NCBI GenBank assembly: GCA_029260345.1
Contig: JAJDDK010000004.1
Coordinates: forward strand, 124,001 to 188,000
Length of the DNA: 64,000 bases
Direction: 5' to 3'
Source of the DNA: Phycisphaerales bacterium
GTDB lineage: Bacteria > Planctomycetota > Phycisphaerae > Phycisphaerales > UBA1924
In this document: piece after piece, positions 15,241-55,373 of the stretch
Layout of the letters: each line of letters opens with the position of its first letter
Position numbering within the stretch: the first letter of the stretch is position 1
Made by a program: the position numbers and the translations under genes
Notes under the pieces: model-generated
What the model was told of the DNA's origin: nothing
Databases searched by the model: none
Seen by the model: only the letters and a program-made list of their open reading frames with translations

Positions 15241-15243
15241 GAA

Positions 15244-29809: not shown

Positions 29810-29812
29810 ACC

Positions 29813-29836
29813 GGAGCCCCAAGCACGAGCGCGGGG
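29813..29836 (+). repeat. Isolated module Q-like repeat
   Basis: GGAGCCCC...GAGCGCGGGG, a degenerate copy of the GAGCCCCGAGCGCAAGCGAGGGG module seen at 24579, 45362 and 47251. It lies four bases after the gspE stop. Confidence 0.5.
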
Positions 29837-29944
29837 TCGTAGTTGCCCACATCGTGGAGGTGTCTTCAGTCTGCTCGTCGAGTTGACCCCGGAGGCATTG
29901 GAGTTCGCGTTTCCGACCGTGACGAGGCAGGGAGGCCGCAGTAG

Positions 29945-29998
29945 CCCCTCACCCGGCTTCGCTGCGCTGCGCCGACCTCTCTCGCAGGGAGAGGTGGG
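29945..29998 (+). repeat. CCCCTCACCCGG palindromic element between gspE and gspF
   Basis: CCCCTCACCCGGCTTCGCTG, then GCCGACCTCTCTC and GCAGGGAGAGGTGGG. Ends CCTCTCTC / GGGAGAGG can pair. Related in plan to the elements at 11756 and 12014 but with a different centre. Confidence 0.6.
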
Positions 29999-30063
29999 AA
30001 CGGAGCGATTATGCTTTGTCGGCCGCACTCGTTCTGGCTCCACCACTGCTGACCAACAGTTGC

Positions 30064-31269
30064 ATGTCTGACGCCGCACTGACCACGCCGTTTATGTACA
30101 TCGCCGTCAAGCCCACGGGCGGACGGCGCTATGGCATGCGCTATGCGCCGACGCGGTCGGAATTGGCGTCGTCGCTGTCGGAAGAGCAGCTTCTGCTGCT
30201 TCGCTCATGGCGCTTGCCGAATTGGACGGCGCGCGAACAGCGGCTCAACCTGAAGGATCAAGCGGCGCTCAATGAACAACTTGGGGCGCTTGTCGATCGC
30301 GGCGTGCCGCTGGTCGAAGCGCTTGAAGTGGCGCAGACGGTTGTGAGCAAGAACGCGGCGCCGGCGGTGGCAAAGCTCCGTGAACTTGTCTCCGCGGGTG
30401 ATTCATTTGCCGATGCGTGCGCCAAGACTGGCGCGTTCGATGATGTGGTCATCACGGTGTATCGATCGGCGGAGCGCTCTGGTCAGCTTGGCGCCAGTGC
30501 GCAGCGATTGGCGGAGTCGGCGAAACGACGCCTGGGCATCTCGGGCAAAGTCGTCACGATGATGATTTACCCGGCGGTCGTGCTTTCGGTCGCAGTGGTC
30601 GTCACGATTATTGTGCTGACGATGGTGGTGCCAAAGATCGCGGTCACACTTCAGCAAACTGGCGGCACGCTGCCGTGGTACACGCAAGTGGTGATGGCGG
30701 CGGGGCAGGGTCTGCGCGATCAGTGGCTGATGTCGCTAATTGGCTTTGGCGGGCTGCTGGTTATTGCGATCTTGCTGCGCGAAGCGGTTGGCGCCTGGAT
30801 CATGGCGCTGTTGCGCCGGGCGCCGCTGTTTGGGAAGGTGATGCTCACGAGTGAATCGGCGCGGTTTTTCTCGGTGATGGGCGCGATGACGCGCACGGGC
30901 GTGCCGCTGGCCGATGCGCTGTCTGTCGCGACGGGTGTGATCTCGCACCCGAAATTGCGTGAACAACTGCTGTCGCTGGGGCGCGGGCTGGTCGAGGGCG
31001 GCGTCCTGAAGAACATGATTGAAAAGCTTGATGCGCTGCCGCTGGCGACGCGGCGTTTGCTCATCGCCGCAGACCGCGCTGGTGATATGGATCAGGTGTT
31101 TGATGATCTGGCGAAGGACTTGGCGCAGCAGGTGGACACGCAAACGCAGCGCGCGGTTGGTTTGCTTGAGCCGCTGCTGATCGTCGGCGTCTTCATCATC
31201 ATCGGCGGCGTGCTGATGAGTGTGATGCTGCCGCTGATGACGCTGGGGTCGCGGATTGGGAATGTTTGA
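30064..31269 (+). CDS. gspF: GspF inner-membrane platform protein (cluster B)
   Basis: 401 residues. Unlike cluster A it starts with a variant N-terminus (FMYIAVKPTGGRRYGMRYAP). Two T2SSF repeats follow: LNEQLGALVDRGVPLVEALE with YPAVVLSVAVVVTIIVLTMV, and SARFFSVMGAMTRTGVPLAD with LLIVGVFIIIGGVLMSVMLP. It is separated from gspE by 254 bases that carry two repeat elements, so it may have its own promoter, although GspE and GspF are partners. The ATG at 30064 is the first in frame with a plausible domain start; no strong ribosome site is seen. Confidence 0.9.
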   Translation: MSDAALTTPFMYIAVKPTGGRRYGMRYAPTRSELASSLSEEQLLLLRSWRLPNWTAREQRLNLKDQAALNEQLGALVDRGVPLVEALEVAQTVVSKNAAPAVAKLRELVSAGDSFADACAKTGAFDDVVITVYRSAERSGQLGASAQRLAESAKRRLGISGKVVTMMIYPAVVLSVAVVVTIIVLTMVVPKIAVTLQQTGGTLPWYTQVVMAAGQGLRDQWLMSLIGFGGLLVIAILLREAVGAWIMALLRRAPLFGKVMLTSESARFFSVMGAMTRTGVPLADALSVATGVISHPKLREQLLSLGRGLVEGGVLKNMIEKLDALPLATRRLLIAADRAGDMDQVFDDLAKDLAQQVDTQTQRAVGLLEPLLIVGVFIIIGGVLMSVMLPLMTLGSRIGNV

Positions 31270-31290
31270 GCGTTTCTGATCGGGGCTGCA

Positions 31291-31326
31291 CAGAATCCGA
31301 ACCGCGCCCGTAAGGAAGCGGTTGCC
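31291..31326 (-). repeat. CTTCCTNACGGGCGCGGTTCGG repeat, copy 3
   Basis: Minus strand reads CGCTTCCTTACGGGCGCGG then TTCGGATTCTG, matching copy 2 at 15244 through TTCGG. Inverted relative to copy 4. Confidence 0.7.
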
Positions 31327-31421
31327 ACGGATTTCGCGGCACATCAAAGGCTGGCGCCATTGCACGATGGGACTGGATTCTGTCCTCCAAGACCCTCAGA
31401 TTACTCAAGCGTCTGGTGGAA

Positions 31422-31455
31422 GCCGCTACCTCACGGGCGCGGTTCGGATCGGCGC
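31422..31455 (+). repeat. CTTCCTNACGGGCGCGGTTCGG repeat, copy 4
   Basis: Reads GCCGCTACCTCACGGGCGCG then GTTCGGATCGGCG. With copy 3 it could form a stem closing about 100 bases. Confidence 0.65.
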
Positions 31456-31475
31456 GACGACACTTCAAAAGGCAC

Positions 31476-31510
31476 AAAAACACAAGCGGACCCAATTGGG
31501 TCCGCTTGTG
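31476..31510 (-). terminator. Rho-independent terminator of PEP-CTERM-like gene 1
   Basis: Minus strand: perfect 15-base arms CACAAGCGGACCCAA / TTGGGTCCGCTTGTG, then TTTTTG. It begins 74 bases after the stop at 31584. Outer stem equals that of the terminator at 32454-32488. Confidence 0.85.
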
Positions 31511-31583
31511 CATGGAGAATTCCTTGGACGCCGCTCACCTTTACAGGCGTGCGGCTTTCAAACGGTTTTCACCGCTGTGTCGA

Positions 31584-32261
31584 TTAGCGACGGCGACGCA
31601 ATGTGGCGAGGCCGGCGACACCGAAGAGCGCCATGGCGCCCGGGGTCGGGACAATCAACTTGACGGGGTTCTCGATGGCTTCACCCGGGGCCTGCGTGTA
31701 GACGGAGAATGAGCCCGAGAGCAGCTCGCTGACGGCGTTTGCGCCGGTTTCTCCAAGGCCGAGGAGGGTGAACTGGAACAGCAGCGTGCCAAAGGTGCCA
31801 TTACCAAGGTCGACCGAGGCGCCGCCGACTGCATTGGGCGGGTTCGAGTTGAACCAGCCACCAGAGAAGTTGGTGTCGCTGGCAGCGGTGCCGGGCTCGG
31901 TCGAGATCGCCGCACCGGGACCAGCATTGGTCGGCGCGCCGATCGTGCCGAAGCTGTCGTACTGGAGCGTTGGGGCGAGCGGGAAGAACGCAGCATTCGG
32001 GGGCGTGAGGCCGCCGAATGCGTCCTGATAGAACGTGCCACTGACGGCATTGATGTTGACGAACGACGTGCTGACTACGGTGTTGACCGAACCATCGCCG
32101 ATGCCGTCGAACGTGGCATAGACATTGAGAACTGTCGCGGCCTGGCCCAGGACGGCGGATGCGCCGGCGCTGTCGCCTTCGACAACAGCCGCGCCGATGA
32201 AGGCAGCATTAGCATTGGCGGCACACGCAAGTGCCGACGTCACGATAAGCGCACGATTCAT
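31584..32261 (-). CDS. Secreted beta-domain protein with PEP-CTERM-like tail, paralogue 1
   Basis: 225 residues. The signal peptide (MNRALIVTSALACAANANA) is cleaved before AFIG. The single domain contains NTVVSTSFVNIN, LQYDSFGTIGAP, SGGWFNSNPPNA and ASVDLGNGTFGTLLFQFTLL. The tail VPTPGAMALFGVAGLATLRRRR has the PEP-CTERM plan: a P-x-P-like motif, one membrane helix and a basic end. That plan is a sorting signal processed by an exosortase, none of which is in the window. GGAG lies about eight bases before ATG 32261. Close paralogue of the next gene and homologous to the protein at 39725. Confidence 0.85.
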   Translation of the reverse strand: MNRALIVTSALACAANANAAFIGAAVVEGDSAGASAVLGQAATVLNVYATFDGIGDGSVNTVVSTSFVNINAVSGTFYQDAFGGLTPPNAAFFPLAPTLQYDSFGTIGAPTNAGPGAAISTEPGTAASDTNFSGGWFNSNPPNAVGGASVDLGNGTFGTLLFQFTLLGLGETGANAVSELLSGSFSVYTQAPGEAIENPVKLIVPTPGAMALFGVAGLATLRRRR

Positions 32262-32566
32262 GTATGACTCCTTTTCTCCTCCCGCAGCGGGCATGTGCGT
32301 CGCACCGCCAGCGGATTGTGCTTTCGCGTACGCCCCAAGATTACCTGAAGGATTGAGGCGAATCAGCGCCCTTGTCACAAAAAAGAATCACAAATCAGCA
32401 AAATTACATATAGGACCAGGCCTTTGGGGTCATCGAACCGGTATGGAAGGTCCAAAAACACAAGCGAGCCCAAAAGGGCTCGCTTGTGCGGGAATTCAAT
32501 CTTGTCAGCCGGTCATTCGTCGGAAGAGTCAGGAGTGCGAACGACCGTTGTTAGCTGGCGAATCAA
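32262..32566 (-). other. 305-base spacer between the two PEP-CTERM-like genes
   Basis: Holds the terminator of paralogue 2 and the upstream region of paralogue 1. The minus strand has a TATATG/TGTAAT region near 32404-32413 as a possible -10 with no convincing -35. No gene is seen. Confidence 0.6.
32454..32488 (-). terminator. Rho-independent terminator of PEP-CTERM-like gene 2
   Basis: Minus strand: CACAAGCGAGCCC, TTTT loop, GGGCTCGCTTGTG, then TTTTTGG. The outer CACAAGCG/CGCTTGTG stem equals the terminator of paralogue 1, while inner pairs differ in a compensated way. Confidence 0.85.
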
Positions 32567-33244
32567 TTAGCGACGACGACGCGTCGCAGCGAGGCCCGCC
32601 ACTCCGAAGAGTGCGAGGGCGCCCGGGGTCGGGACGAACTTGACGAAGTTCTCGACGGCAACGCCATCGCCCTGCGTGAAGACGGACATCGAGCCGCTGA
32701 TCAGCTCAGTGATGGTCTGAGCGCCCTGCTCGCTGCCACCGATGATGGTGAGCTGGAACAGGAGCGTGCCGAACTGGCCGCCACCGAGGTCAACGCTGGC
32801 AGCGCCAACGCCGTTGGGCGGGTTCGAGTTGAACCAGCCACCGCTGTAGTTCGTCGCGCCTTCACCCGTGCCGGGTTCGGTCGAGATCGCCGCGCCAGGA
32901 CCGGAGTTGTCCGGGGCGCCGATCGTGCCGAAGCTGTCGTACTGAAGCGACGGGGCGAGCGGGAAGAACGCAGCATTCGGGGGCGTCACGCCGCCGAATG
33001 CGTCTTGGTAGAACGTGCCGCTAAGCAGGTTGATGTTCACGAACGACGTGCTGACCACGGTGTTCGCCTGACCATCACCCGCGCCGTCAAACGCAGCGTA
33101 GATGTTCAGGACGGTCGCGGCCTGACCGAGCACGGCAGACGCGCCGGCGCTGTCGCCCTCGACGATCGTCGCGCCAAGGAAGGCCGCGTTGGCAGCGCTG
33201 GCGCCAACGGCGAGACCAGCAGCCATAGCAATAGTACGAATCAT
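32567..33244 (-). CDS. Secreted beta-domain protein with PEP-CTERM-like tail, paralogue 2
   Basis: 225 residues, the same length as paralogue 1 and collinear along its whole length. Signal peptide MIRTIAMAAGLAVGASAANA, then AFLG. Motifs: NTVVSTSFVNIN, LQYDSFGTIGAP, SGGWFNSNPPNG, ASVDLGGGQFGTLLFQL. Tail PTPGALALFGVAGLAATRRRR. Stretches of DNA are identical to paralogue 1, while the mid-domain varies, as expected for a recent duplication under selection. It has its own extended -10 promoter and terminator, so each paralogue is a separate transcription unit. Confidence 0.85.
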   Translation of the reverse strand: MIRTIAMAAGLAVGASAANAAFLGATIVEGDSAGASAVLGQAATVLNIYAAFDGAGDGQANTVVSTSFVNINLLSGTFYQDAFGGVTPPNAAFFPLAPSLQYDSFGTIGAPDNSGPGAAISTEPGTGEGATNYSGGWFNSNPPNGVGAASVDLGGGQFGTLLFQLTIIGGSEQGAQTITELISGSMSVFTQGDGVAVENFVKFVPTPGALALFGVAGLAATRRRR

Positions 33245-33554
33245 GTGGAACTCTCCTCTTCTTCTTCTCTTCTACGCCCCGCACGCACGTGCGAGACGCA
33301 TGACACAGTGACCGGCTGACCGGGCACACACGATGCTTCCCTGAATATACCAGAGGCCAATCCTGAAGCCAGCGCCTTGTTGAGGTTTTTTGCGCTCGTT
33401 TTGCGTAAATGGCCCCAACGAAAGACCCAGAATCGAATACTTAACCCATCTTTACTGGGGCCTTTGCCCTAAATACAAACCCTGAGAAGATATTTGCGCT
33501 TTCGCAATCGACCAAGAACGACTTGCGGCCCGCGCGTCACCTTTGCCTCGACGA
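33245..33554 (-). other. 310-base spacer upstream of PEP-CTERM-like gene 2
   Basis: Holds the extended -10 promoter near 33344 and about 95 bases of leader. Toward 33420-33475, GGCCCCA and TGGGGCC pair at a distance and could end the secretion operon, but no T-run follows. No gene is seen. Confidence 0.55.
33344..33352 (-). promoter_or_regulatory. Extended -10 promoter of PEP-CTERM-like gene 2
   Basis: Minus strand reads TGGTATATT: the TGn extension joined to TATATT (five of six). The -35 (TGGCTT, 16 bases away) is weak, which is usual for extended -10 sites. Predicted leader is about 95 bases to the ATG at 33244. Confidence 0.55.
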
Positions 33555-34202
33555 CTACTCGCCGCCGGTCTTCCGCATGGATTCGGCCTCGCCTTTGGCG
33601 TACACCTCGGCCTCGACCTGAGGGCGCTGCATTTCGAACCACTGACGCCACTGCTCATCTCGCTCTTGTCCGAGAGCAATTCGCAATCGCCGCAATGTTT
33701 CGTCGCTGGCGCGCCCCAGCAATCGTTCCGCACGAATGGCGCCGCGCAAGGCGGGCTGGAATTGCGGGTCTCGCTTGAGGGACTCACCGTAAAAGCGAAG
33801 CGCATCAGTCATGTAGCCCGCCTGCTCCCACGTCAGGCCAAGGTTGTAGAGCGGGCGCGGATCGGTCGGCTCCAGTTCGCTCGCCGTCGTGAATGCCTCG
33901 GCGGCGTCGAGGTACTGCTGCTGCTCCATAAGCAGCACACCCAGGTTGTTCCAGGCGGACGCCAGTTCGCGGTACGTCGCGATGGCCTCGCGATACAAGG
34001 AGATCGCCTTCGTTGTGGATTTTGCCTTCTGTGCCTGCAGCGCCAAAGCCTGAGCCTGCGCGATCATGACGGACTCATCTTCCACTTCGATGACGACCGG
34101 GCCGCTTGACGTCGAATTACAGCCCCCCGCCCCCACGAAGGCGGCGCCGGCGACCACGAACAATCCCAAGACGGCATATCGATTCACGAGCGAAGCTCCC
34201 AT
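33555..34202 (-). CDS. TPR lipoprotein, candidate pilotin (cluster B)
   Basis: 215 residues. MGASLVNRYAVLGLFVVAG leads to the lipobox GAGGC. The body has about three TPR units, for example AWNNLGVLLMEQQQYLDAAE and PLYNLGLTWEQAGYMTDALR. TPR lipoproteins of the PilF/PilW type guide secretin assembly in the outer membrane, and this one ends a T2SS operon, so a pilotin role for GspD is likely but inferred. The chosen start (34202) overlaps the end of the upstream gene by 19 bases. Confidence 0.7.
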   Translation of the reverse strand: MGASLVNRYAVLGLFVVAGAAFVGAGGCNSTSSGPVVIEVEDESVMIAQAQALALQAQKAKSTTKAISLYREAIATYRELASAWNNLGVLLMEQQQYLDAAEAFTTASELEPTDPRPLYNLGLTWEQAGYMTDALRFYGESLKRDPQFQPALRGAIRAERLLGRASDETLRRLRIALGQERDEQWRQWFEMQRPQVEAEVYAKGEAESMRKTGGE

Positions 34203-34747
34203 CGAGCAACCTGCACACGGATGAGCCACCCATTCGGACGAGGGCGCAGCTCAATCGCGCTGACAAAGAGGTCGGGTATGGCCCGTTGGGCCGCGTTGAT
34301 CCATTCCAGAGCCGCATCGAGCGGCGCGTTGTCCATGGTGATATCCACCCGGCGCTTCTCGATCGACGATCCGATCGTGCGAGTGGGGCGCTGTTCGGAC
34401 AAAGTCGGCGCCGTTGGGAGTCGCACCTGCTGATTGATCGCCTCGAGTTTCGAGAGCTGCAGCTCGCGCTTGTACCGCCCGTCGCTTTGGCCTTCGGATG
34501 CCTCTTCACGCAGCGCAATAATCTCATCGGCGACCGCCGTCACGCCGGCGCGCTCATTCGCGAGGCGATGCACCGAGAGGCGGGCCGCGCCGGATTGCAC
34601 CAGGCTTGCGATAGCGAAGATGATCGCCGCGACCAGCAGGACGCCGCAAGTGACCAGCAGCGCCGTAGGCCGGTTGCGCCGGGCGGCGGCGGCGGCGTAC
34701 ATCTGCACGTCGCGCGCTTCAGCAGGAGTCAGGGTGCTTTTCTTCAC
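34184..34747 (-). CDS. GspM/PilO-like inner-membrane protein (cluster B)
   Basis: 187 residues. A short cytoplasmic start, one membrane helix (LLVTCGVLLVAAIIFAIASL, about 29-50), a coiled segment and a C-terminal alpha/beta domain (RRVDITMDNAPLDAALEWIN), the plan of GspM. The GTG start overlaps the stop of the GspL-like gene (GTGA) and has GGGGAG seven bases upstream. GspM stabilises GspL in the platform. Confidence 0.65.
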   Translation of the reverse strand: MKKSTLTPAEARDVQMYAAAAARRNRPTALLVTCGVLLVAAIIFAIASLVQSGAARLSVHRLANERAGVTAVADEIIALREEASEGQSDGRYKRELQLSKLEAINQQVRLPTAPTLSEQRPTRTIGSSIEKRRVDITMDNAPLDAALEWINAAQRAIPDLFVSAIELRPRPNGWLIRVQVARWELRS

Positions 34748-36207
34748 GGAGCACTCCCCCACGTTGCAAGAAGGCGCTGCGTCGTCGGCGGCGCTCCAAG
34801 AAACGAACTGCGCCAATCAAGCCGGCCGCCGTTGGTGCGCAGCTGATCGAAGATCGCTTCGCCGGTCGCAAAATCCGGCACGGCAATCGTGATCTCCGCC
34901 TGAAGCTCATCGATTTTCATGGACCGGACGTTGGCGTCCTCTTTGTCGCCAATGACCGTTGCAATCGCGGCTGACGCCAGCAAGAGTTCGTCGAAGATCG
35001 GGTAAGGCGCTTGCGGCGCCTCGATCGGCTTGTTCGCTTCGCGCTCCTGCACCAGCACGCTGCGCAGCGCCCGAACCGGGTCGGCGTTGCTCACGAGCGC
35101 CGGGTCGATCGCGCTGACGTGCTCATTGATTTCCGCACGGAGTTCTGACGTGATTTCCCTGGATTGACTGATCGCCGAGCGCTGGCGCATGCCGATGCCG
35201 GCGACGCCGACAGCGAGCAGCAGAATCGCCGCGACCGTCCAGTACGACAGCCATCGATGTGCACGCCCGGGCCGATGGGTGAGATCCACCACACAGCGCC
35301 GCGGGTCATCCGTCTCGGCGGCGCTTTCCGCCAATGCGGCGAGCGTCTTGGCGAGCGGATCATTCACCGTGCGCGTTTCAGCGCCGGATTCTGGCCAATG
35401 CTCGGTGAGCACCTGCTGAATCGTTTCCGGCGCTTTGGACACCACGGTGATGCGCTGCGGCGCATCACCGATTTGCGCTGACCATGCGAGCCAATCCAGC
35501 ACAAGGCGCGGCGGCGCCGCTTTGACTGCATCTTCTTCCGCCGCAACATCATCCAATTCGTCCGTCGAGACTTTGCGGGAGTGCCCGGCCGCGATGAGAT
35601 TGCTCGCGCGTGACCAGCTCCAGATGTAGGCGTCGTCCAGTTCGAGCACGACGCCGGTGAGCGCCCGCTCGTCCACGCCCTTGGCGGGCCATGCTTCAGC
35701 AATCCCGTGCCACAACGTCTCGACCGATTCAGGACTGATCCCCTGCTGATCGAGCTGATCGAGCCACAATCGCACCGGTCCATCGTGCATTTCGACGACG
35801 GTCATGCGGCCGGTGGTCGGCGCGATGTGATCGCCGTTGCCCCGCGACTTGCGCGAACGTTGGCGAGGCTGGGCCAGCGCCTGCACTGTGGTGCCGCCAG
35901 TGTCGGTGGTCCATTCGCGTTCGCGCTGGCTGAGCGCCGCGGCAAGCACATCCCGAGCGGCGCTGGGCGCTGACACTCGCGCGCAGATCGAGTCTTCAAC
36001 TGAAATTACAACCGCGCCCAATCGGCGGGACCGACCGAGGCGGCCCGCCGTCCAAGTCGCGGCGTCGCGAGCGCGGGTCACCATGCGCGAAACGGCGCTC
36101 CCGCCGGCGTCATCCGAAAACGCGGGCGCGCGCCACGTTTCATCGACGCCGTCACCGATGAGCCGCACACTGGAGAGATCCGATTCGATGTAGCAGGCAA
36201 CGCTCAC
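34744..36207 (-). CDS. GspL-like platform protein (cluster B)
   Basis: 487 residues. N-terminal actin-like cytoplasmic domain (ACYIESDLSSVRLIG, then GAVVISVEDSICARV), one membrane helix near 317-340 (YWTVAAILLLAVGVAGIGM), and a periplasmic ferredoxin-like domain (AEITIAVPDFATGEAIFDQL). A long acidic linker (DELDDVAAEEDAVKAA) is unusual. Sequence is far from the cluster A counterpart although the plan is the same. GTG start overlaps the gspC-like stop (GTGA). Confidence 0.65.
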   Translation of the reverse strand: MSVACYIESDLSSVRLIGDGVDETWRAPAFSDDAGGSAVSRMVTRARDAATWTAGRLGRSRRLGAVVISVEDSICARVSAPSAARDVLAAALSQREREWTTDTGGTTVQALAQPRQRSRKSRGNGDHIAPTTGRMTVVEMHDGPVRLWLDQLDQQGISPESVETLWHGIAEAWPAKGVDERALTGVVLELDDAYIWSWSRASNLIAAGHSRKVSTDELDDVAAEEDAVKAAPPRLVLDWLAWSAQIGDAPQRITVVSKAPETIQQVLTEHWPESGAETRTVNDPLAKTLAALAESAAETDDPRRCVVDLTHRPGRAHRWLSYWTVAAILLLAVGVAGIGMRQRSAISQSREITSELRAEINEHVSAIDPALVSNADPVRALRSVLVQEREANKPIEAPQAPYPIFDELLLASAAIATVIGDKEDANVRSMKIDELQAEITIAVPDFATGEAIFDQLRTNGGRLDWRSSFLGAPPTTQRLLATWGSAP

Positions 36208-36929
36208 CGGTTGAAATTCCCTCCTTCATCGGGAATCTCGCCGGCATCGCGGGCCTCGTCGAGTCGGCGCTGCCGCGCCTCTTCGATCTGCTGCATGCGC
36301 TGTTGTTCTAATCGGGCGTTGCGTCCGCGAGCGGACTCGCTTCTGGTGCGAGCATTCATGGCTGACATTGTCGCATCAAACGGCAATGGATCGACGCGCT
36401 TCACTTCAAATCGCCGGTCGTCGCGTTCGAGCAGGAGGCGCTCGGTCGTAACCTCCGCAACCGTGAAGTTCTCGAGCGTCATGCCGGGGCGGACAAAGGT
36501 CTGCTTGGCGTTGATCGTGACCAGCGCCGAGACTCCGCCGTCTGACGTCTTGGCGTACCCGACGTACTGCCATCCGGGAGGCGCCGGATTGGGCCGCGGC
36601 TCATTTGGGTTGCCTTCCGGATCAGTGACCTGGGCCGTCGTTGTTTCTTCTGTCGTCTCAGTCGCGTTCGACGCCGCGGATTGGAGTGGCTCACGCACTT
36701 CACTCAGCGAAGTCGCGAGCACCGTCCAGTCGCTGAGCGGAACGGCGGGCGTGTCTGTGGTTTGATCAGTGGGCTGGCTGGCGACTTGGGTGTGTGTATC
36801 GACCGGCTTGGGGAGTTCAATCGTGCGCTGCGGCAGGATGATCGCGGCGGCCAGCAGCGCGAGCGACACCACGCTCACCACCTGGGCGATGCGTGTCATG
36901 GATCGGGCTGTGCTGCGTCGGAGCATCAT
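36204..36929 (-). CDS. GspC/PilP-like periplasmic linker (cluster B)
   Basis: 241 residues. One N-terminal helix (IAQVVSVVSLALLAAAIIL), a Thr/Pro/Glu-rich linker, then an HR-like beta domain: WQYVGYAKTSDGGVSALVTI, FVRPGMTLENFTVAEVTTER and LLLERDDRRFEVKRV. That is the HR region that contacts the secretin. A basic, coiled C-terminal tail (RMQQIEEARQRRLDEARD) replaces the usual PDZ domain. Two ATGs are possible (36929, 36926). Confidence 0.65.
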   Translation of the reverse strand: MMLRRSTARSMTRIAQVVSVVSLALLAAAIILPQRTIELPKPVDTHTQVASQPTDQTTDTPAVPLSDWTVLATSLSEVREPLQSAASNATETTEETTTAQVTDPEGNPNEPRPNPAPPGWQYVGYAKTSDGGVSALVTINAKQTFVRPGMTLENFTVAEVTTERLLLERDDRRFEVKRVDPLPFDATMSAMNARTRSESARGRNARLEQQRMQQIEEARQRRLDEARDAGEIPDEGGNFNR

Positions 36930-36931
36930 CG

Positions 36932-37759
36932 TCAGCGGTTCCTTTCTGCCGCGCCGCGTTGGCGGCGTGGAGCATCGTCTTCTTCGTCCTGGGCCGATCG
37001 GTCCAGCAGGTTGAGGTCCAGCTCAGAAAGCCATTCGTGGACCGTCGCCCCGTTTTGCACCACCTCGGCAACCATGCCAAAGGTGCGCTCGTTGTCTCTT
37101 TGATCGGTCATTGTGAGGCGCAGGCGCCAGACTGAGGGCTCAAACGTGATGACCTGACCCAGACGCCCTGCTTGTGTCTCGCCACCCGGGTAGCTCCGGA
37201 TGATCTGATTGAACATTTCGCTGTCGATTTTTTGGCGCTCGCGGAGGCTGATGATCTCCTCGGCGAATTCGTCGCCTCGCTGATCGAGCAGTGCAGCAAG
37301 CACCGGGGCGGGCGCCGCATTGATGCTGATCGCGCCGGCGCCGCGCGATCGAACAAGCCCGCTGCGATCGTCCGGAAGCCGGTCGAGAATCTGCTTGTAA
37401 ACGTCGCGCTGCCCTTCCGGCACCGCACTGACCGACGCGACCGGCAATCCCTGACCATCCTCAACACGGACGGAAATGGTCATGACGTCTTCGATCTCGA
37501 ACCGGTACGCCTCCTCTTCACTCTCCGAAAGACGCACGAGCTCCGACGGCGTGCGCCGGCCCATCCAGAGCTCGACGATGGAGCGCACACCGAGCATGTC
37601 ATGGTGTATCTGATAGTCCTGCACCAATCGTCCGACGGTGCGCGTCTGCGCGTTCTGCCGCGTCAGTGTCGCGCCGATCATGAGCGACGCCACCAAGACC
37701 AGCAGCAGCACGAACGCCATGGCGAAGCCTGAACGTCGAGGGCGGGTCATGCGTTTCAT
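36932..37759 (-). CDS. gspK: GspK minor pseudopilin (cluster B)
   Basis: 275 residues. The class III signal RRSGFAMAFVLLLVLVAS lacks Glu5, which is typical of GspK. The mature protein has the GspK helical-insert signature GAISINAAPAPVLAALLD followed by AEEIISLRERQ. GspK caps the pseudopilus with GspI and GspJ. ATG overlaps the gspJ stop (ATGA). Acidic and basic patches end the protein (DEEDDAPRRQRG). Confidence 0.85.
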   Translation of the reverse strand: MKRMTRPRRSGFAMAFVLLLVLVASLMIGATLTRQNAQTRTVGRLVQDYQIHHDMLGVRSIVELWMGRRTPSELVRLSESEEEAYRFEIEDVMTISVRVEDGQGLPVASVSAVPEGQRDVYKQILDRLPDDRSGLVRSRGAGAISINAAPAPVLAALLDQRGDEFAEEIISLRERQKIDSEMFNQIIRSYPGGETQAGRLGQVITFEPSVWRLRLTMTDQRDNERTFGMVAEVVQNGATVHEWLSELDLNLLDRSAQDEEDDAPRRQRGAAERNR

Positions 37760-38508
37760 TGCACGGTCCTCGCTTCCACGATGGGCTCGAAGATCCAGTC
37801 CCCCACGGCGCCGCTCCATGTTTCCAGTTCAATGCGCACGGCTCTTGGAAAATCATCGACAAAGCGGGCGTCGTGTTCGTCCACCCATTCCATGTCGTTG
37901 GACGGCGGCTGCGGGTCGCGCAGCGCCTGCCAAGCCGCGAACTTGATGGCGTCGGCCAAGATCACCGGCTCGCCGCGCGGCGACAGCGGCGTCCACAACA
38001 GCGCCCAGCTTTCCTGCCCGGTCTCGGTGAAATACGGATCCAGTGGATACGTCACGAGTTCAAAAGCGCCCACGACTACATCGCGCTGCGCCGGCGCACC
38101 GGGAATTGGCGAGCGCTTCAGCCGCATCACGATCTTGCGCGGATCCGATTCACCGCGCCGATTGGGAATGGTGTACCCAAGTTCAAACACAGGCGGGTTC
38201 TCGTCGTCATCTTCAAACATCCGCTCGGCAAGCGAATCCTCGCCGAAACGCTCGCGCGCCAAACCGGTGCGCGCGCCCGGCTCCTCCGGCGGATCGACGA
38301 CGCCCACGAGCGAATTCATCGCGGTGCGCATGGTCTCGCGGGCGCGGCCAAGCTCGGAAATATCGTCGAAACGATTCGCGAGCTTGTCATCCATGCGCGA
38401 CACATATTCCATCAACCCAAGCGACGACAACATGATCACCGACGCGATCGACATCGCGAGCATGACTTCCAAAAGCGTAAAAGCGCGGCGGCGCTTCGCC
38501 GGAATCAT
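37756..38508 (-). CDS. gspJ: GspJ minor pseudopilin (cluster B)
   Basis: 250 residues. Prepilin motif RRAFTLLEVMLAMSIASVIM with A/F junction and Glu at +5. The GspJ pattern ISELGRARETMRTAMNSL follows. A long beta domain ends in FPRAVRIELETWSGAVGDW, where the RIELE strand is typical. It overlaps both neighbours by four bases. Confidence 0.8.
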   Translation of the reverse strand: MIPAKRRRAFTLLEVMLAMSIASVIMLSSLGLMEYVSRMDDKLANRFDDISELGRARETMRTAMNSLVGVVDPPEEPGARTGLARERFGEDSLAERMFEDDDENPPVFELGYTIPNRRGESDPRKIVMRLKRSPIPGAPAQRDVVVGAFELVTYPLDPYFTETGQESWALLWTPLSPRGEPVILADAIKFAAWQALRDPQPPSNDMEWVDEHDARFVDDFPRAVRIELETWSGAVGDWIFEPIVEARTVQ

Positions 38509-39071
38509 CGACCAGCCCCGCCACTGACCGGGCTGGTGGACGGCAACTCAACCGGTCGCCCGAGCAACTGTTCCACCTGCCGCAGGAGCACATCTTCATC
38601 CTTCGATGGATCGATCGGGCTGTAAATGCGCGAGATGCTCGCCAGCGGCTCGTCCACGTCGGCGAATCCGCTGTTTTTCAAGTGGTAAATGGTGACCGTG
38701 ATCATCTTGAGACCGGCGCCGAGACGCTCGTCCGCATTCAATCGCGATTCCGGCGCGGCTTGCCGCAGCGCAATGTTCTCGTCTTCGCTTTCCAGTTCGA
38801 GCAGGATCTGTTCGCTCAATTCATGGCGATAGAAATTGTTCTGCCCGTACGGAATGCGCTCGCCCTCACTGGGCAGTGATTTGGGATCAAGCAGATAGTT
38901 GAGAATAAGTCGATGCGCGACTTCCGAAGCGTAAATGCGATGCTGCTGGCGATCGTCGATCCGGTTCACCCCGTCGTAGGCCGTTGCGATGATCGCGGCG
39001 ACGCTCGACAACAGCGCCACCGCCAGCGCAACCTCAAGGAATGTGACACCTCGACGCGCCGTCATACTCAC
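38505..39071 (-). CDS. gspI: GspI minor pseudopilin (cluster B)
   Basis: 188 residues. Prepilin motif ARRGVTFLEVALAVALLSSV (G/V junction, Glu at +5). ASEVAHRLILNYLLD and VTIYHLKNSGFADVDEPLAS fit a GspI-like fold, though it is longer than the usual 120-130 residues. The GTG start at 39071 overlaps the gspG stop (GTGA); an ATG two codons later is possible. Confidence 0.7.
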   Translation of the reverse strand: MSMTARRGVTFLEVALAVALLSSVAAIIATAYDGVNRIDDRQQHRIYASEVAHRLILNYLLDPKSLPSEGERIPYGQNNFYRHELSEQILLELESEDENIALRQAAPESRLNADERLGAGLKMITVTIYHLKNSGFADVDEPLASISRIYSPIDPSKDEDVLLRQVEQLLGRPVELPSTSPVSGGAGR

Positions 39072-39481
39072 TCATCCCAGACGGAAATGTCATCCGGCGT
39101 GTTGGGCGCGCCGTCCGGCCCCATGCTGAAGAGGTCGTACGGGCGAGCCGCATCGCCGGTCGGGGAGAAGTAGGCGTAATCTCGCTGCCACGCGTCCTTC
39201 AATGCCTTGGACTCGACATAAGAAGGCACGAGCACAACTAACCCCTCGGCAGTGGTCGGATACGCGCCCTTGTCCGAGCTGTACTCGACCAGGCTCGATT
39301 TCAAGGTGTTCAGCCCAATTTTGGTCGTGCGGCCTTTGGCTCGTTCGCCGGCGCCGGCAAAGTTGATCGCGACCGCCGCCGCCAGGGCGCCAATGATGAG
39401 CAGCACGAGCATGACTTCGAGCAGGGTGAACGCCCTGCGATTGCGGCTCGTGAATGGGTTTTTCGATTCGAAACGGTTCAT
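39068..39481 (-). CDS. gspG: GspG major pseudopilin (cluster B)
   Basis: 137 residues, a classical GspG. Prepilin motif RRAFTLLEVMLVLLIIGAL (A/F, Glu +5). YPTTAEGLVVLV is the helix-to-loop signature. The calcium loop and end DLFSMGPDGAPNTPDDISVW are intact. It builds the pseudopilus and is first in the cluster B minus-strand operon, directly opposite four secreted-protein genes. AAGGAGG lies 12 bases before the ATG, a long spacing. Confidence 0.93.
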   Translation of the reverse strand: MNRFESKNPFTSRNRRAFTLLEVMLVLLIIGALAAAVAINFAGAGERAKGRTTKIGLNTLKSSLVEYSSDKGAYPTTAEGLVVLVPSYVESKALKDAWQRDYAYFSPTGDAARPYDLFSMGPDGAPNTPDDISVWDE

Positions 39482-39724
39482 CGTGAAATCAAGCCTCCTT
39501 CGCCACGGACAGCCCGAGACGGGCCGCAGTCTATGAAACGCACGAGGCGGGTGTAGGTTCCCGTGTCCGCGGATTCTGTACCTCTTCCGGCGGAACTCAT
39601 GTTCTCGGCATTCGCGGACTTGCGGCGAAAAAACATTCCGAGCGCCAATTCAGGGTTTTCCCCTTTTCACATCGCCCGACCTGCCGGATGATGGTGAGGA
39701 GATCAAACTTAAAGGAGGAGCGCC

Positions 39725-40594
39725 ATGAAGCATGGCTATTCAATCGGCCTCGCCACCATGTTCGGCGCCGCGACTTTTTTCGCGACCACGCCAGCCTCGG
39801 CCGCGTTCCTCGGCGTCAAGATCACGAGCGACGACGGCGTCAACGCCTTTGCTCGAGAAACACTCGCCAATGCGTTCGTGGAGGATGCGGAAACCGCGAT
39901 TGTGCTTCGCGTCTGGGCCGTCTTTGACGGGCCGGGCGACGGCGTCGACAACACGGTGCTCTCTACGAGCTTCGTCAATTTGTGGCCCGCGCGGCCCAAC
40001 GTGATTTTTTATCAGCATCCGCAAGGGAGCACACTGCCGCCCAATGAAGCGCTCTTCGGTTTCTTGCCTGCGCTCCAATTTGATTCATTCGGCTCCATCG
40101 GCGGCCTCACCATGAGTGACGCCTCGACCGTCCTGAATCGCCCCGGCGCTGATGAAGGCATCCTGCATATGGAAGGCGGCTGGTTCAACAGTTTTCCGCC
40201 CAACGCGAATGGCGCCGCGAGTGTGGACCTCGGCGACGGCACCTTCGGCACGCTGCTCTTCCAGTTCACCTTGCTGGGCGACGAAACCGAACTGTGCATG
40301 GAAGAAGAGGAAGGCGCGTTTATCACCGGTCTTCTTTCCGGACAGTTGTCCATCTTTGTGCAAGGCTCCAGTCAGGCCAGTGAAGTGCCAATCTTCGGAG
40401 GTTTGTACTGCACCGGCGAACTTGCGAACGACGGCGGCGGCGTTTCCGTCATCAACGGCGTTGACCTTGCGTACATGCTCAGCCAGTGGGGCCCGGCGGT
40501 GCAATGCGTCACGCGCAGCGATTTGAACAACGACGGCGACGTCAACGGCGCCGACCTCGCCATGCTGCTCTCAAATTGGGGATGTACGCCATGA
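39725..40594 (+). CDS. Secreted beta-domain protein with dockerin-like tail (homologue of the PEP-CTERM-like pair)
   Basis: 289 residues. Signal peptide to PASA/AFLG. The domain shares with the 31584 and 32567 proteins TVLSTSFVNL, LQFDSFGSIGGL, EGGWFNSFPPNA, ASVDLGDGTFGTLLFQFTLL and LLSGQLSIFVQG, in the same order. The PEP-CTERM-like tail is replaced by two EF-hand/dockerin-like halves: VINGVDLAYMLSQWG and DLNNDGDVNGADLAMLLSNW. AAAGGAGGAG lies seven bases before the ATG. The next gene overlaps its stop (ATGA). First of four tandem secreted proteins. Confidence 0.88.
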   Translation: MKHGYSIGLATMFGAATFFATTPASAAFLGVKITSDDGVNAFARETLANAFVEDAETAIVLRVWAVFDGPGDGVDNTVLSTSFVNLWPARPNVIFYQHPQGSTLPPNEALFGFLPALQFDSFGSIGGLTMSDASTVLNRPGADEGILHMEGGWFNSFPPNANGAASVDLGDGTFGTLLFQFTLLGDETELCMEEEEGAFITGLLSGQLSIFVQGSSQASEVPIFGGLYCTGELANDGGGVSVINGVDLAYMLSQWGPAVQCVTRSDLNNDGDVNGADLAMLLSNWGCTP

Positions 40595-41433
40595 AACAAG
40601 CAAAACCAATTTTCGCACTCGCTTCCGTCGCGGCTCTCGCCGCGAGCGCCAGCGCCGGGCCATCCTCGTTTGTGCTCCAGCGCGTTGAAGGCGTCGAACC
40701 CACTGCCCGCGCAGCGCTGATGGCGGACGGCGTTGCACAAGCGGAAACCGCACGCGTGTACGTGCTGTACCTCACCTTTGCGCCGACCGGCGAAGGCGAG
40801 TTCCCCGGTCTTGCCAACGAAAAACTACTGGCGATGGAAGATGTATCCATCGAACTCGTGCAGCCGCAGTTTCGGTTCTTTCAGTCCGAGGCGCCGGGCG
40901 CCGGTGACACGCCGCCCTTGAGCGCCGACTGGGCGAGCGATCCGTCGCTGCAATGGGACAGCTTTGTTTCACTCGGCGTGTCGAACAGCAACGTGTTTGA
41001 CTCCACCACGACCGCGCCAGATTTTGTCTTTGATGAACATCACATCGCGGGGAGTTGGTTCGACGCCGAACCGGAAAGCGCGCTGGGCACACCGCCCGTG
41101 ACGAATCCTTCGTGGCTCCTGATCGCGCGTTTTACCGTGCTCGGCGCCTGCGATGAAGACCTTGTGTATTTCGAAGGCGTCGGCACGCCGGTCGGAACAG
41201 CCGACCCGGTCGGATCGCAGAACTTCTCACTTGTTCCCGGCAACCCCGCCGCCGCAGCGGACAACACACAAGGGCCCATCGGCGTCATTGATCTGCAAAA
41301 CGTTCTCATGCGCTGGGGCAGCGTGAACACCGAAGGCTGCTGGCCCGCGGCGGACTTCAACGCCGACGGCGTCGTCAACGGGCTGGACCTTGTCGTCGTG
41401 CTGTCGAACTGGGGCGAGATTCCGAAGATCTGA
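40591..41433 (+). CDS. Secreted protein with dockerin-like tail, tandem member 2
   Basis: 280 residues. Signal peptide (KPIFALASVAALAASASA). The domain is related to the first member only in patches: QAETARVYVLYLTF, LQWDSFVSLGVS and IAGSWFDAEP. The C-terminus again has two halves, GVIDLQNVLMRWG and DFNADGVVNGLDLVVVLSNW. The ATG overlaps the previous stop; an in-frame ATG three codons upstream is possible. Function unknown; the shared export and tail suggest the same destination. Confidence 0.8.
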   Translation: MKQAKPIFALASVAALAASASAGPSSFVLQRVEGVEPTARAALMADGVAQAETARVYVLYLTFAPTGEGEFPGLANEKLLAMEDVSIELVQPQFRFFQSEAPGAGDTPPLSADWASDPSLQWDSFVSLGVSNSNVFDSTTTAPDFVFDEHHIAGSWFDAEPESALGTPPVTNPSWLLIARFTVLGACDEDLVYFEGVGTPVGTADPVGSQNFSLVPGNPAAAADNTQGPIGVIDLQNVLMRWGSVNTEGCWPAADFNADGVVNGLDLVVVLSNWGEIPKI

Positions 41434-41484
41434 GTTTGCGCGTCAAGGCGCTTCAGGATTGCTGAACTGATTGAAAGGTTTGGA

Positions 41485-42354
41485 ATGAAAACAGCATCGG
41501 CGATCGCGATTTCAATGGCATGCTTTCTAAGCGTCGCGGCGCGCGCCGAAATCATCGGCGTACGCCTTGTGGAGGACGAATCGCTCAATGCTGAAGCACG
41601 ATTGGCGCTCACCGACTTTGGTGTCGAGAACGCAGAGACGGCGCGCGTGCTTCGCATGTATCTCGTGTACGACGAAGCGACGGCGGCGGATCAGTTCCTT
41701 TTCAGCGCGTCGGTTCGGATCATCACACTCAGTCCGTTTCATTCTTTTTTCAATCATCCGTTGGGCGACAATCTCCCGCCCAACGCCGATGATGTCGCAA
41801 ACGACCCAGCGCTCGAATTCGATACGTTCTTTACGATCAACATTACGATGGAGACTGGAGAGCCACTCATCGGACCGAATGCAGGCAATGACAGCATTTC
41901 AAACGACCTCATCGCCGGTGGGAGCGGACCGACGCTTGCAGGTTTTGCTCAAGACGTAAGCGTCCCGTCCACTCCACTTGGTGAAGGCGAGGTAGGGGCC
42001 CTTGTCTTGCAAATGACGCTCCTAGGCGCTGAATGCCAAACTGGAATTGATGAGTTCTTTCTGCAATGGCCAGTCTACGTGGCACAGTTCGCATTCGATG
42101 GCACCGAAAGTGCGACGTTTCAATACACGGGTGATCGTCCGTGCTATGCGTCACTTGACGAAGACAACGATCCGACGGGCGGATTCACGATTGACGGCGC
42201 CGATCTTGCGCAGTTTCTGGCAGCATGGGGACCGCACGAATCCTGCGAGAAAGCCGATTTCAACAGCGATGGCGTCGTCAACGGTTTCGATCTCGCGATG
42301 CTGCTGTCGGAATGGGGAAACTGTTACTGCTGTGAGCATGCGTTTCCGAGGTGA
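41485..42354 (+). CDS. Secreted protein with dockerin-like tail, tandem member 3
   Basis: 289 residues. Signal peptide (AIAISMACFLSVAARA/E). Shared markers: VENAETARVLRMYLVYDE, FFNHPLGDNLPPNADD (compare FYQHPQGSTLPPNE in member 1) and LEFDTFFTIN. Tail FTIDGADLAQFLAAWG and DFNSDGVVNGFDLAMLLSEW, then a cysteine-rich end (CYCCEHAFPR). GAAAGG lies six bases before the ATG. Confidence 0.82.
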   Translation: MKTASAIAISMACFLSVAARAEIIGVRLVEDESLNAEARLALTDFGVENAETARVLRMYLVYDEATAADQFLFSASVRIITLSPFHSFFNHPLGDNLPPNADDVANDPALEFDTFFTINITMETGEPLIGPNAGNDSISNDLIAGGSGPTLAGFAQDVSVPSTPLGEGEVGALVLQMTLLGAECQTGIDEFFLQWPVYVAQFAFDGTESATFQYTGDRPCYASLDEDNDPTGGFTIDGADLAQFLAAWGPHESCEKADFNSDGVVNGFDLAMLLSEWGNCYCCEHAFPR

Positions 42355-42408
42355 CGGCCTTGTTTTCTTGTCGGCGTATTGTTGCCCATGGCGACTCAGG
42401 AGACTTTC

Positions 42409-43287
42409 ATGCGATTCGCAACAACAAAGCTCACATCCGCCGGCGTCGCCGCGTCACTCTGCCTGTGCCCGCTGAGCCGCGCCGATCTCGTCGGCGGCAT
42501 GCTCGTCACGCTGCCGGAGTGGAATGACGCCGCTTCGACGACGCTCGGTGAGCCGACGCAGGTGTTCCGCCTCTTCATCGCGTTTGAAAACCCGACGGAC
42601 GAACTCAATCAGGTCTATCTCGGATACGAGACGACCTTTCTTGCAACCATGTCGGGGACGTTTCATTTTGATCCAATGAATCCGACGCTTATTCCCCCGG
42701 CGCCGGCGCATTTCGAATTCGCACCGGAGCTTGAATGGAGCACCTATTTCGGTCTTGGCAATCTTCATGCGCCTGCGGAAACGCTGAACTGTCTCCCGCT
42801 GGAAGGCGTCACCGACACCGTGATCGATGACACCTGCTGGAGCTGCTCGAACTCCTCCGATGAAGGAATTGCTCGCGCGCCGGGTTCGACGGATGCCAAC
42901 GGCGAAGTCGTCATTCCGGAATCGCTGGATCCGCGCTTCTCTTACGTTTTCGCCGGGCAATTCGTCGTTCACGAATCAAACCTCGATCCGGTCGTGCGGC
43001 TCATCCCCGCGCGCGATCGCATCTGGTCGGACGCCTTCGCGGGCATTCTCTTTCTTCAGTTTCGTGAGAACAACGACATCAACCCGCAATCAGCGTCCAT
43101 TCAGTTTGCTCCAATCGGCTGTCCCGGCGACATGAACGGCGACGATGTGGTCAATGGCGCTGACCTCGCAACCGTCATCGCGGTGTGGGGCGAGGATGTC
43201 GGCTCGCTCACGCCCAACAGCTCGCCGATTGGCGGCGATGACCTGGCAAGGCTTCTCGCCAACTGGGGCCCCTGTTTGCCGCAGTGA
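42409..43287 (+). CDS. Secreted protein with dockerin-like tail, tandem member 4
   Basis: 292 residues. Signal peptide (KLTSAGVAASLCLCPLSRA/D). The body is the most divergent of the four; TQVFRLFIAFENPTDELNQV and LEWSTYFGLGN keep the family pattern, and a CWSCSN motif is new. The tail has DMNGDDVVNGADLATVIAVW and GGDDLARLLANWG. AGGAG at 42399-42403 sets the ATG at 42409 over one at 42379. acs follows after 33 bases but is unrelated in function. Confidence 0.8.
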   Translation: MRFATTKLTSAGVAASLCLCPLSRADLVGGMLVTLPEWNDAASTTLGEPTQVFRLFIAFENPTDELNQVYLGYETTFLATMSGTFHFDPMNPTLIPPAPAHFEFAPELEWSTYFGLGNLHAPAETLNCLPLEGVTDTVIDDTCWSCSNSSDEGIARAPGSTDANGEVVIPESLDPRFSYVFAGQFVVHESNLDPVVRLIPARDRIWSDAFAGILFLQFRENNDINPQSASIQFAPIGCPGDMNGDDVVNGADLATVIAVWGEDVGSLTPNSSPIGGDDLARLLANWGPCLPQ

Positions 43288-43320: not shown

Positions 43321-45360
<2,040 letters not shown>

Positions 45361-55157: not shown

Positions 55158-55373
55158 ACGATCCTGATGCAGAGATCGCCATACCCCCTCGAAGCGCGCC
55201 CCGGATCGCCCCCAATTTTCCTGCGAACGCCTGATAATCCGGACGCTTTCGTCAGGTTTCACGCCCTTCACCATTGATTAGGCTTGATCGGCCTCGATCG
55301 ATGAGGTCTACTAATTTCAGTGCGCAGCACCGGACGCCGCGCTTTGGCCCTTCCTTCGAATAACGGGTGGAAC

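What the first reader, a model, noticed from the sequence alone, without database searches (positions are those of the whole stretch)
31584..43287. One secreted beta-domain with two exchangeable C-terminal tails next to a T2SS
The proteins at 31584-32261 and 32567-33244 and the one at 39725-40594 share ordered motifs (NTVxSTSFVN, LQxDSFGxIG, GGWFNSxPPN, ASVDLGxGxFGTLLFQ). The first two end in a PEP-CTERM-like P-x-P/helix/RRRR tail; the third ends in two EF-hand/dockerin-like halves. The body is conserved while the sorting tail is swapped. All three genes lie inside or against the cluster B secretion genes. This suggests the tail is a modular address, and that one cargo family is sent to two destinations. 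Tail swap is seen directly; the link to the secretion machine is inference.
Basis: partly seen in the sequence, partly recalled or inferred. Interest (0 to 1): 0.8.

Follow-up and report, generated by a model that had tools for sequence, protein, structure and literature searches.

The report
Secreted protein family with swappable tails
A family of secreted bacterial proteins that matches no curated family model keeps the same main domain while repeatedly exchanging its tail between two kinds of surface-sorting tag, and in one bacterial lineage these genes sit beside a protein-export machine, which suggests, but does not prove, that the tail decides where the exported protein ends up.

Summary
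Six genes in the window, not three, encode one body: two with a PxPG/helix/RRRR tail, four with half-degenerate dockerin tails. The body rows tested match no Pfam, NCBIfam or PHROG model. Of 168 body proteins collected from 47 genomes, 98 end in a PEP-CTERM-like tail and 44 in a dockerin; 13 genomes hold both. A tree of 181 bodies needs at least 16 PEP/dockerin changes. In one relative two bodies are 92.5% identical in DNA over 577 bp, and the match stops just before their different ends. The link to the type II secretion (T2SS) operon is real but lineage-bound: bodies lie at the operon end in 6 of 43 clusters read, in a conserved order of which the window carries an inversion. Few of the other loci fetched around bodies show a T2SS operon. 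The genome has two exosortases and 99 dockerin matches (54 over cut-off) but no detectable cohesin, so the dockerin destination is unknown. Best reading: Sec export, probable T2SS transit, and a tail that sets covalent anchoring versus docking or release. Transit and destination are inference.

The parts
31584..32261 (-). body protein P0001: signal peptide (by reading), beta-domain, PEP-CTERM-like tail
31587..31649 (-). tail of P0001, PTPGAMALFGVAGLATLRRRR
   Evidence: sub-threshold matches to sorting-tag models
32567..33244 (-). body protein P0002, PEP-CTERM-like tail
32570..32632 (-). tail of P0002, PTPGALALFGVAGLAATRRRR; helix 210-222 in the model, at low confidence
39725..40594 (+). body protein P0003, dockerin-like tail
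40451..40567 (+). dockerin-like tail of P0003 (second half has a good Ca loop)
   Evidence: Pfam Dockerin_1 E=0.0022, below cut-off
40591..41433 (+). body protein P0004 (start taken at ATG 40591), dockerin-like tail
41485..42354 (+). body protein P0005, dockerin tail
   Evidence: (dockerin_GC E=3.6e-4)
42409..43287 (+). body protein P0006 (start taken at ATG 42409), most diverged body, dockerin-like tail
25644..28121 (+). GspD secretin
   Evidence: TIGR02517 E=2.5e-61 (below its equivalog cut-off); PF00263
28118..29809 (+). GspE ATPase
   Evidence: PF00437 E=1.1e-131; TIGR02533 E=2.7e-167, below cut-off
30016..31269 (+). GspF
   Evidence: TIGR02120 E=1.3e-60, below cut-off
39068..39481 (-). 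GspG major pseudopilin
   Evidence: TIGR01710 E=2.9e-23 (82.4 bits, cut-off 88.85)
38505..39071 (-). GspI-like minor pseudopilin
   Evidence: TIGR01707 E=0.0046, below cut-off
37756..38508 (-). GspJ-like minor pseudopilin
   Evidence: N_methyl E=7.1e-7, over cut-off; TIGR01711 E=0.0013, below cut-off
36932..37819 (-). GspK
   Evidence: NF037980 E=3.6e-9; PF03934 E=8.8e-5; both below cut-off
36204..36929 (-). GspC-like
   Evidence: NF041515 E=1.8e-5, below cut-off
34744..36207 (-). protein in the GspL position; an alignment led by it matches 137 of 150 family genomes
   Evidence: position only, no NCBIfam model
34184..34816 (-). GspM-like
   Evidence: PF04612 E=0.003, sub-threshold
33555..34229 (-). 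TPR protein, last gene of the gsp operon, directly upstream of the PEP-tailed bodies on the same strand; PilW/Tgl-like at a sub-threshold level
   Evidence: PF07719 E=5.3e-14; TIGR02521 E=3.5e-12, below cut-off
43321..45360 (+). acetate-CoA ligase, downstream border of the slot
   Evidence: TIGR02188 over cut-off
47880..49199 (-). Porin_O_P porin, further downstream border
   Evidence: PF07396 E=5.7e-18

Best explanation
The six genes are paralogues of a secreted beta-sandwich family, without a curated model, that serves as cargo on which C-terminal sorting tags are exchanged. Shown: common descent of the bodies, two main tail types, repeated switching, and a conserved slot at the 3' end of the gsp (T2SS) operon in one lineage. 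Inferred: all are exported by Sec through their signal peptides. The PEP-type tail is held in the inner membrane, cut by one of the two exosortases and left attached to a surface anchor. The dockerin-type tail gives a soluble Ca-dependent module that docks on an unidentified surface partner or stays on a released protein. The adjacent T2SS moves the folded body over the outer membrane in either case. Gene duplication plus recombination at the body-tail border then lets the cell re-address the same domain.
For: Body homology. Tails in 168 proteins of 47 genomes: 98 PEP, 44 dockerin, 8 FG-GAP, 6 none, 9 cut by contig ends, 3 other; both PEP and dockerin in 13 genomes (recounted). Tree of 181 bodies: at least 16 PEP/dockerin changes; starred branches force 8 for the label PEP and 11 for dockerin, while FG-GAP and no-tail rows need 1 each; 11 changes with compact dockerin proteins only. 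G250: body DNA 92.5% identical over 577 bp, ending before the differing C-terminal parts; no DNA match over the signal region. G031: tandem PEP, PEP, dockerin bodies directly after the TPR gene, one clade 100/97. Operon slot in 6 of 43 clusters (plus the window). Naive expectation for 8 family genomes 0.14 body loci within 10 kb of gspL, 3 observed. Two exosortases over the TIGR02602 cut-off. 99 dockerin_GC matches, 54 over cut-off. A conserved large protein sits in the same slot in 13 of 42 clusters, with a dockerin tail in the seven that I read. Two other tripartite tags, MYXO-CTERM and GlyGly-CTERM, rely on the T2SS (PMC11980579, passages). A T2SS route for a PEP-CTERM protein has been supposed in print (PMC9850573, passages).
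Against: Few of the other loci around bodies carry a T2SS operon and 37 of 43 clusters read have no recognised body, so the machine does not need them and they do not need that position. The slot matches share ancestry, so the chance figure is no test of function. No cohesin in the own genome and in only 2 of 40 genomes, so docking has no known partner. The tails fall below curated cut-offs. In the G250 case the dockerin lies at the far end of a 2294-aa protein. There are no expression, localisation or processing data.
Confidence: 0.5

Rival explanations
1. The swapping is real but the T2SS neighbourhood is incidental: the gap between the gsp operon and acs is a tolerant slot in which secreted-protein genes accumulate, and tails are exchanged because both kinds are abundant in these genomes.
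For: 99 dockerin matches in this genome and dockerins in 40 of 40 genomes; few other body loci near a T2SS operon; other genes in the same slot, such as a prepilin-like gene in G022.
Against: Tail-bearing proteins (large dockerin protein or bodies) were read in the slot in 9 clusters, and 15 of 43 hold that protein or a body. Order and strand are kept across genera, on the operon strand after its last gene.
Confidence: 0.35
2. The body is a cryptic cohesin-like receptor: PEP-tailed forms are anchoring scaffoldins, dockerin-tailed forms adaptors, and the many dockerin proteins are the enzymes they collect.
For: VIA-align 2 lists many cohesins among the rows for both models (5nrm: Z 6.5, rmsd 3.9, 129 aligned; Z 6.5, rmsd 4.0, 126 aligned; also 2jh2, 2vo8, 6kgc), and no Pfam cohesin is found in the own genome.
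Against: Z below 8 with models at pLDDT 62.5 and 66.8 can be a common beta-sandwich; Als adhesins rank higher (Z 7.2, rmsd 3.2, 124 aligned; Z 7.6, rmsd 3.3, 122 aligned). Family genomes in which no body was detected have more dockerins, not fewer (median 90 against 17).
Confidence: 0.05
3. The dockerin-like tail is not an address but a small Ca-binding folding or stability module that replaces the PEP tail when surface anchoring is lost.
For: Half-degenerate Ca loops in all four window tails (sequence reading); cohesins in only 2 of 40 genomes.
Against: 113 dockerin matches, the ceiling of the count, in each of seven genomes suggest a shared sorting or docking role.
Confidence: 0.1

Closest known systems
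PEP-CTERM / exosortase (EpsH) sorting system (PMC1569441, passages)
   Same: Signal peptide, Pro motif, hydrophobic helix, basic end; exosortases present in the genome
   Different: Motif is PTPG/PAPG rather than PEP; below the cut-off of the curated models hit; the passages I saw do not describe exchange with dockerin
Families whose members carry GlyGly-CTERM, LPXTG or PEP-CTERM tails (PMC3237569, section 12 read)
   Same: One body family, alternative C-terminal sorting tags; the closest precedent
   Different: There all the tails are tripartite membrane tags, in members of different species; here a membrane tag alternates with a dockerin, also within single genomes and tandem arrays
GC-type dockerin domain-anchored proteins (NCBIfam NF041540)
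   Same: C-terminal DxNxDGxVNxxDL loops, many per genome
   Different: Window tails are half degenerate; one of four has an NF041540 match, none reaches the cut-off
MYXO-CTERM / myxosortase with T2SS (PMC11980579, passages)
   Same: C-terminal tag with basic end; T2SS surface delivery is the route proposed here
   Different: No Cys in the two window R-tails; T2SS dependence untested here
PEP-CTERM protein PepA of Aquincola (PMC9850573, passages)
   Same: A T2SS role for a PEP-CTERM protein is supposed; a TPR gene (prsT) is said to lie often near PEP-CTERM genes, as a TPR gene does here
   Different: There the T2SS is supposed to lead into the periplasm and no gsp linkage is shown in the passages; the TPR protein here is 224 aa and far below the PrsT cut-off
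Planctosome cohesin/dockerin proposal (PMC6461901, passages)
   Same: Dockerins in planctomycetes
   Different: Needs cohesins, not detected in this genome

Membership tests
PEP-CTERM proteins | tripartite C-terminus: Pro motif, hydrophobic helix, basic cluster, with N-terminal signal peptide | tested here: met
   Read from P0001 and P0002; no signal-peptide program was run; helix 210-222 in the P0002 model has pLDDT under 50
PEP-CTERM proteins | match to a curated PEP-CTERM-type model over cut-off | tested here: not met
   NCBIfam and Pfam hits of P0001 and P0002 all sub-threshold; PF07589 search of the genome empty, but its controls were empty too
PEP-CTERM proteins | exosortase in the same genome | tested here: met
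   Two over cut-off, PF09721 E=1.3e-53 and 8e-45, both over the TIGR02602 cut-off
PEP-CTERM proteins | cleavage by the exosortase | not testable with these tools
   needs an experiment
GC-type dockerin proteins | C-terminal duplicated Ca-loop module over the NF041540 cut-off | tested here: not met
   P0005 20.9 bits against 29; P0003, P0004 and P0006 no NF041540 match; one good loop each by reading
Cohesin-dockerin system | cohesin partner in the genome | tested here: not met
   PF00963 none at E<=1 in the own genome; 2 of 40 genomes at E<=0.001, one over cut-off. A very divergent cohesin is not excluded
Cohesin fold (for the body) | cohesin-like jelly-roll | tested here: inconclusive
   Best cohesin Z 6.5; Als adhesins 7.2 and 7.6; models pLDDT 62.5 and 66.8
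T2SS gene cluster | gspD, E, F, G and minor pseudopilins together | tested here: met
   the NCBIfam equivalog cut-offs are not reached, so a divergent member
T2SS substrate | secretion lost in a T2SS mutant | not testable with these tools
   only neighbourhood evidence

The most novel reading that the evidence does not exclude
In this lineage the T2SS recognises the beta-body itself and carries both exosortase-processed (PEP-type) and dockerin-tailed forms over the outer membrane, so that swapping the tail after a shared export step switches a protein between covalent surface anchoring and docking or release. This would give exosortase substrates a defined outer-membrane route; in the passages seen I found only a supposition of T2SS involvement, no demonstration.
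Probability: 0.25. Interest if true: 0.75.

Novelty: new variant of a known kind. Interest (0 to 1): 0.5.

Why it matters
How exosortase substrates cross the outer membrane, and what the dozens of dockerins without a detectable cohesin do in these genomes, are open points as far as the papers seen here show. A family in which nature has already made matched constructs (same body, different tail, in one genome) allows a direct test of both. The body domain is present in 41 of 397 genomes searched in the class and the 22 rows tested have no Pfam, NCBIfam or PHROG match.

Tried and rejected
Chance similarity of the bodies: rejected by E-values and by profile hits in 41 of 397 genomes of the class (mostly at most 8 candidates scored per genome and part of the matches not listed, so counts are lower bounds).

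Body as general receptor of the dockerins: disfavoured. Dockerin counts are lower in family genomes with bodies (14 genomes, median 17) than in those where none was detected (20 genomes, median 90; Mann-Whitney p=0.002; p=0.02 with 13 after thinning most repeated genera, counts). Counts stop at 113 and related genomes are not independent.

Fold search: Foldseek gave nothing at E<=0.001 for the P0003 model in PDB or for the P0002 model in BFVD. The sequence profile gave one PDB row at E=0.25. The two models share 13 alignment rows and are not independent.

Literature: PEP-CTERM + dockerin + exosortase together 0 papers; dockerin + planctomycetes + type II secretion 0; three of 'C-terminal sorting', paralog, PEP-CTERM, dockerin 0; GC-type dockerin 0; Phycisphaer + PEP-CTERM 1, where PEP-CTERM stands in the reference list. 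Only open-licence PMC papers are held.

Tail labels: a regular expression, then corrections by eye (20 single-loop calls to dockerin; 7 'other' to dockerin; 1 to PEP; 8 to FG-GAP; 6 to none). Proteins with the same body letters within a genome were counted once. Before the body search I cut 30 or 70 residues off PEP or dockerin ends so that tails could not create body hits, which sets the smallest tail lengths. An earlier profile round ran into the tails and was replaced. The large tree is a quick one with SH-aLRT support alone, 42 of 178 inner branches starred.

Direction of the swap could not be decided: the trees are unrooted. Whether tails came from the large dockerin protein of the same slot was not settled; it was not found in the window or in the G031 locus, the two clusters with dockerin-tailed bodies, which is two cases only.

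The inversion is inferred from gene order. I looked for inverted repeats at its ends: a repeat pair lies at the left end, and the right end shows no copy.
Full report
WHAT IS THERE. The window is contig C4:124001-188000 of a 3.40 Mb genome in 8 contigs; the named relatives found for the body are Phycisphaerales MAGs (five loci from two MAGs). The three ORFs of the finding exist at the stated places and share their motifs. The array is larger: P0004, P0005 and P0006, up to 43287, carry the same body at lower identity. So two PEP-tailed and four dockerin-tailed paralogues lie within 11.7 kb. The own genome holds at least two more loci: a 1014-aa ORF on C6 with two bodies, each followed by dockerin-like loops, and a PEP-tailed gene near C4:223.7 kb.

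THE TAILS. The R-tails show the tripartite PEP-CTERM plan, but with PTPG instead of PEP, and stay below the cut-offs of the curated models hit. The genome has two exosortases over the TIGR02602 cut-off, so a sorting enzyme is at hand. The dockerin-like tails each keep one good Ca loop; the other half is degenerate or interrupted (reading). The genome has 99 dockerin_GC matches at E<=0.01, 54 of them over cut-off, and no Pfam cohesin at E<=1. Among 40 genomes, own included, two have a cohesin at E<=0.001, while all 40 have a dockerin_GC match at E<=1e-5.

THE BODY FAMILY. A profile of five window bodies found matches in 13 of 61 genomes, own included; a 22-row profile found the family in 41 of 397 genomes of the class. 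None of the 22 rows matches Pfam, NCBIfam or PHROGs at E<=0.01. AlphaFold2 models (pLDDT 62.5 and 66.8, 13 and 14 rows) are mainly strands. Foldseek gives no confident match. VIA-align 2 ranks Als adhesins first (Z 7.2, rmsd 3.2, 124 aligned; Z 7.6, rmsd 3.3, 122 aligned), then cohesins (up to Z 6.5) and MSCRAMM-type adhesins (Z about 5-6). This fits a beta-sandwich of the adhesin/cohesin kind but proves no kinship.

TAIL SWITCHING. From loci of 47 genomes I collected 168 body proteins: 98 PEP-type, 44 dockerin, 8 FG-GAP-like, 6 without a tail, 9 cut by contig ends, 3 other. Thirteen genomes hold both PEP and dockerin forms, 21 PEP but no dockerin, 9 dockerin but no PEP, 4 neither. On a maximum-likelihood tree of 181 body domains the PEP/dockerin character needs at least 16 changes; starred branches force 8 (label PEP) and 11 (label dockerin). 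FG-GAP and no-tail forms each need a single change, an internal contrast. Restricting dockerin proteins to those with at most 130 residues after the body leaves 11 changes. A second, more careful tree of 48 bodies gives 6 changes, 5 forced by starred branches. The labels are clustered relative to shuffles in the large tree (0 of 500 as low), so switching is repeated but not random.

TWO DIRECT CASES. In G250 a 268-aa PEP-tailed ORF and a 2294-aa dockerin-ended ORF share 577 bp at 92.5% DNA identity. The match covers residues 52-244 of the first ORF, from the likely signal-peptide border to four residues before the PAPG motif; the signal region gives no DNA match. The dockerin there lies at the far end of a long protein, so this is one body in two architectures rather than a bare tail exchange. 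In G031 three tandem bodies directly after the gsp operon end in PEP, PEP and dockerin, the dockerin one with about 135 extra residues between. They form one clade (100/97), and the dockerin form is sister to one PEP form (97/76, not starred).

THE SECRETION NEIGHBOURHOOD. A protein in the gspL position of this cluster matches in 137 of 150 family genomes. Bodies lie at the end of the operon in 6 of 43: window; G141 (7 PEP); G162 (1 PEP); G437 (1 PEP, and a second PEP-tailed gene that the careful tree pairs with it, 100/100); G031 (2 PEP, 1 dockerin); G022 (2 PEP, about 5 kb downstream, and weak: E 1e-4 to 9e-6 with the broader profiles only). Where it can be read, the order is gspF-G-I-J-K-C-L-M-TPR, a large dockerin-tailed protein (a relative is detected in 13 of 42 clusters; 660-743 aa and dockerin-tailed in the seven read), bodies, acetate-CoA ligase, porin. 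The ligase was found downstream in six relatives (G009, G147, G257, G022, G141, G162), three of them with bodies; in G437 the porin follows without it, and in G031 neither was found before the contig end. The TPR protein is weakly like PilW/Tgl, proteins named for pilus biogenesis or social motility. In the window the segment from gspG to the two PEP bodies is inverted relative to gspD-E-F and acs. Undoing that inversion on paper would bring all six bodies into one array between the TPR gene and acs (inference from gene order). So the split into a pair inside the cluster and a quartet against it is most simply a rearrangement, not two recruitments.

LIMITS OF THE LINK. For 115 other loci fetched around body matches (14 under 4 kb, some overlapping), tblastn with the window's gsp proteins found this operon at G141 and G162, two or three other gsp-like genes near bodies in G346 (gspD, E, F) and G391 (gspF, G), and a single hit in seven. 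Diverged gsp genes would be missed. The own genome has four secretins, so several such clusters per genome are expected. A naive chance figure for the family (0.14 expected, 3 observed among 8 genomes) says the slot is not random placement, but inheritance explains conserved order without a functional link.

MECHANISM. Shown: bodies, tails, switching, slot. [quoted passage not shown] protein families can carry alternative sorting tags (PMC3237569, section 12 read). A T2SS step for a PEP-CTERM protein is supposed, not shown, in PMC9850573 (passages). Inferred: Sec export of all forms, exosortase processing of PEP-type forms, T2SS transit, docking or release of dockerin forms. I put the whole chain at 0.5; the switching alone I hold to be near certain.

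VERDICT. Swapping of sorting tails is known in kind (PMC3237569). Exchange of a membrane-sorting tail with a dockerin, in a domain without a curated model, within one genome and one tandem array, is a new variant as far as the searches show.

Noticed in passing
window 31295-31328 and 31416-31449; also 15208-15271: A dispersed repeat (core GCTNCCTNACGGGCGCGGTTC) occurs 49 times in the own genome with up to 2 mismatches, against 0 for the reversed control. An inverted pair sits between gspF and the first PEP body, at one end of the inferred inversion.
   Followed up: partly
window 25644-39481: The gsp segment gspG-to-TPR with the two PEP bodies is inverted relative to the order in other family clusters.
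   Followed up: partly
L142 4957-7077, L151 7142-9304, L226 7013-8992 and ten more clusters: A conserved large protein follows the TPR gene of the T2SS operon in 13 of 42 clusters (dockerin tail in the seven read); no hit in the window.
   Followed up: partly
window 31480-31511 and about 32456-32490: Very similar terminator-like hairpins follow P0001 and P0002, as if the duplication included them (the second by reading, not in the scan list).
   Followed up: no
window 55320-57560: A subtilase-like protein (by weak NCBIfam matches) with a dockerin_GC tail over the cut-off, followed by another dockerin-tailed protein at 57808-59985 (dockerin over cut-off).
   Followed up: no
genus g24 genomes (G023, G072, G090, G103, G294, G308), G024; also G034: Very many GC-type dockerins (113, where the count stops, in the first seven; 83 strong ones in G034) with no Pfam cohesin at E<=0.001.
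   Followed up: partly
L078, L057, L061, L120, L059, L119: A clade of large proteins with two body domains and no sorting tail.
   Followed up: no
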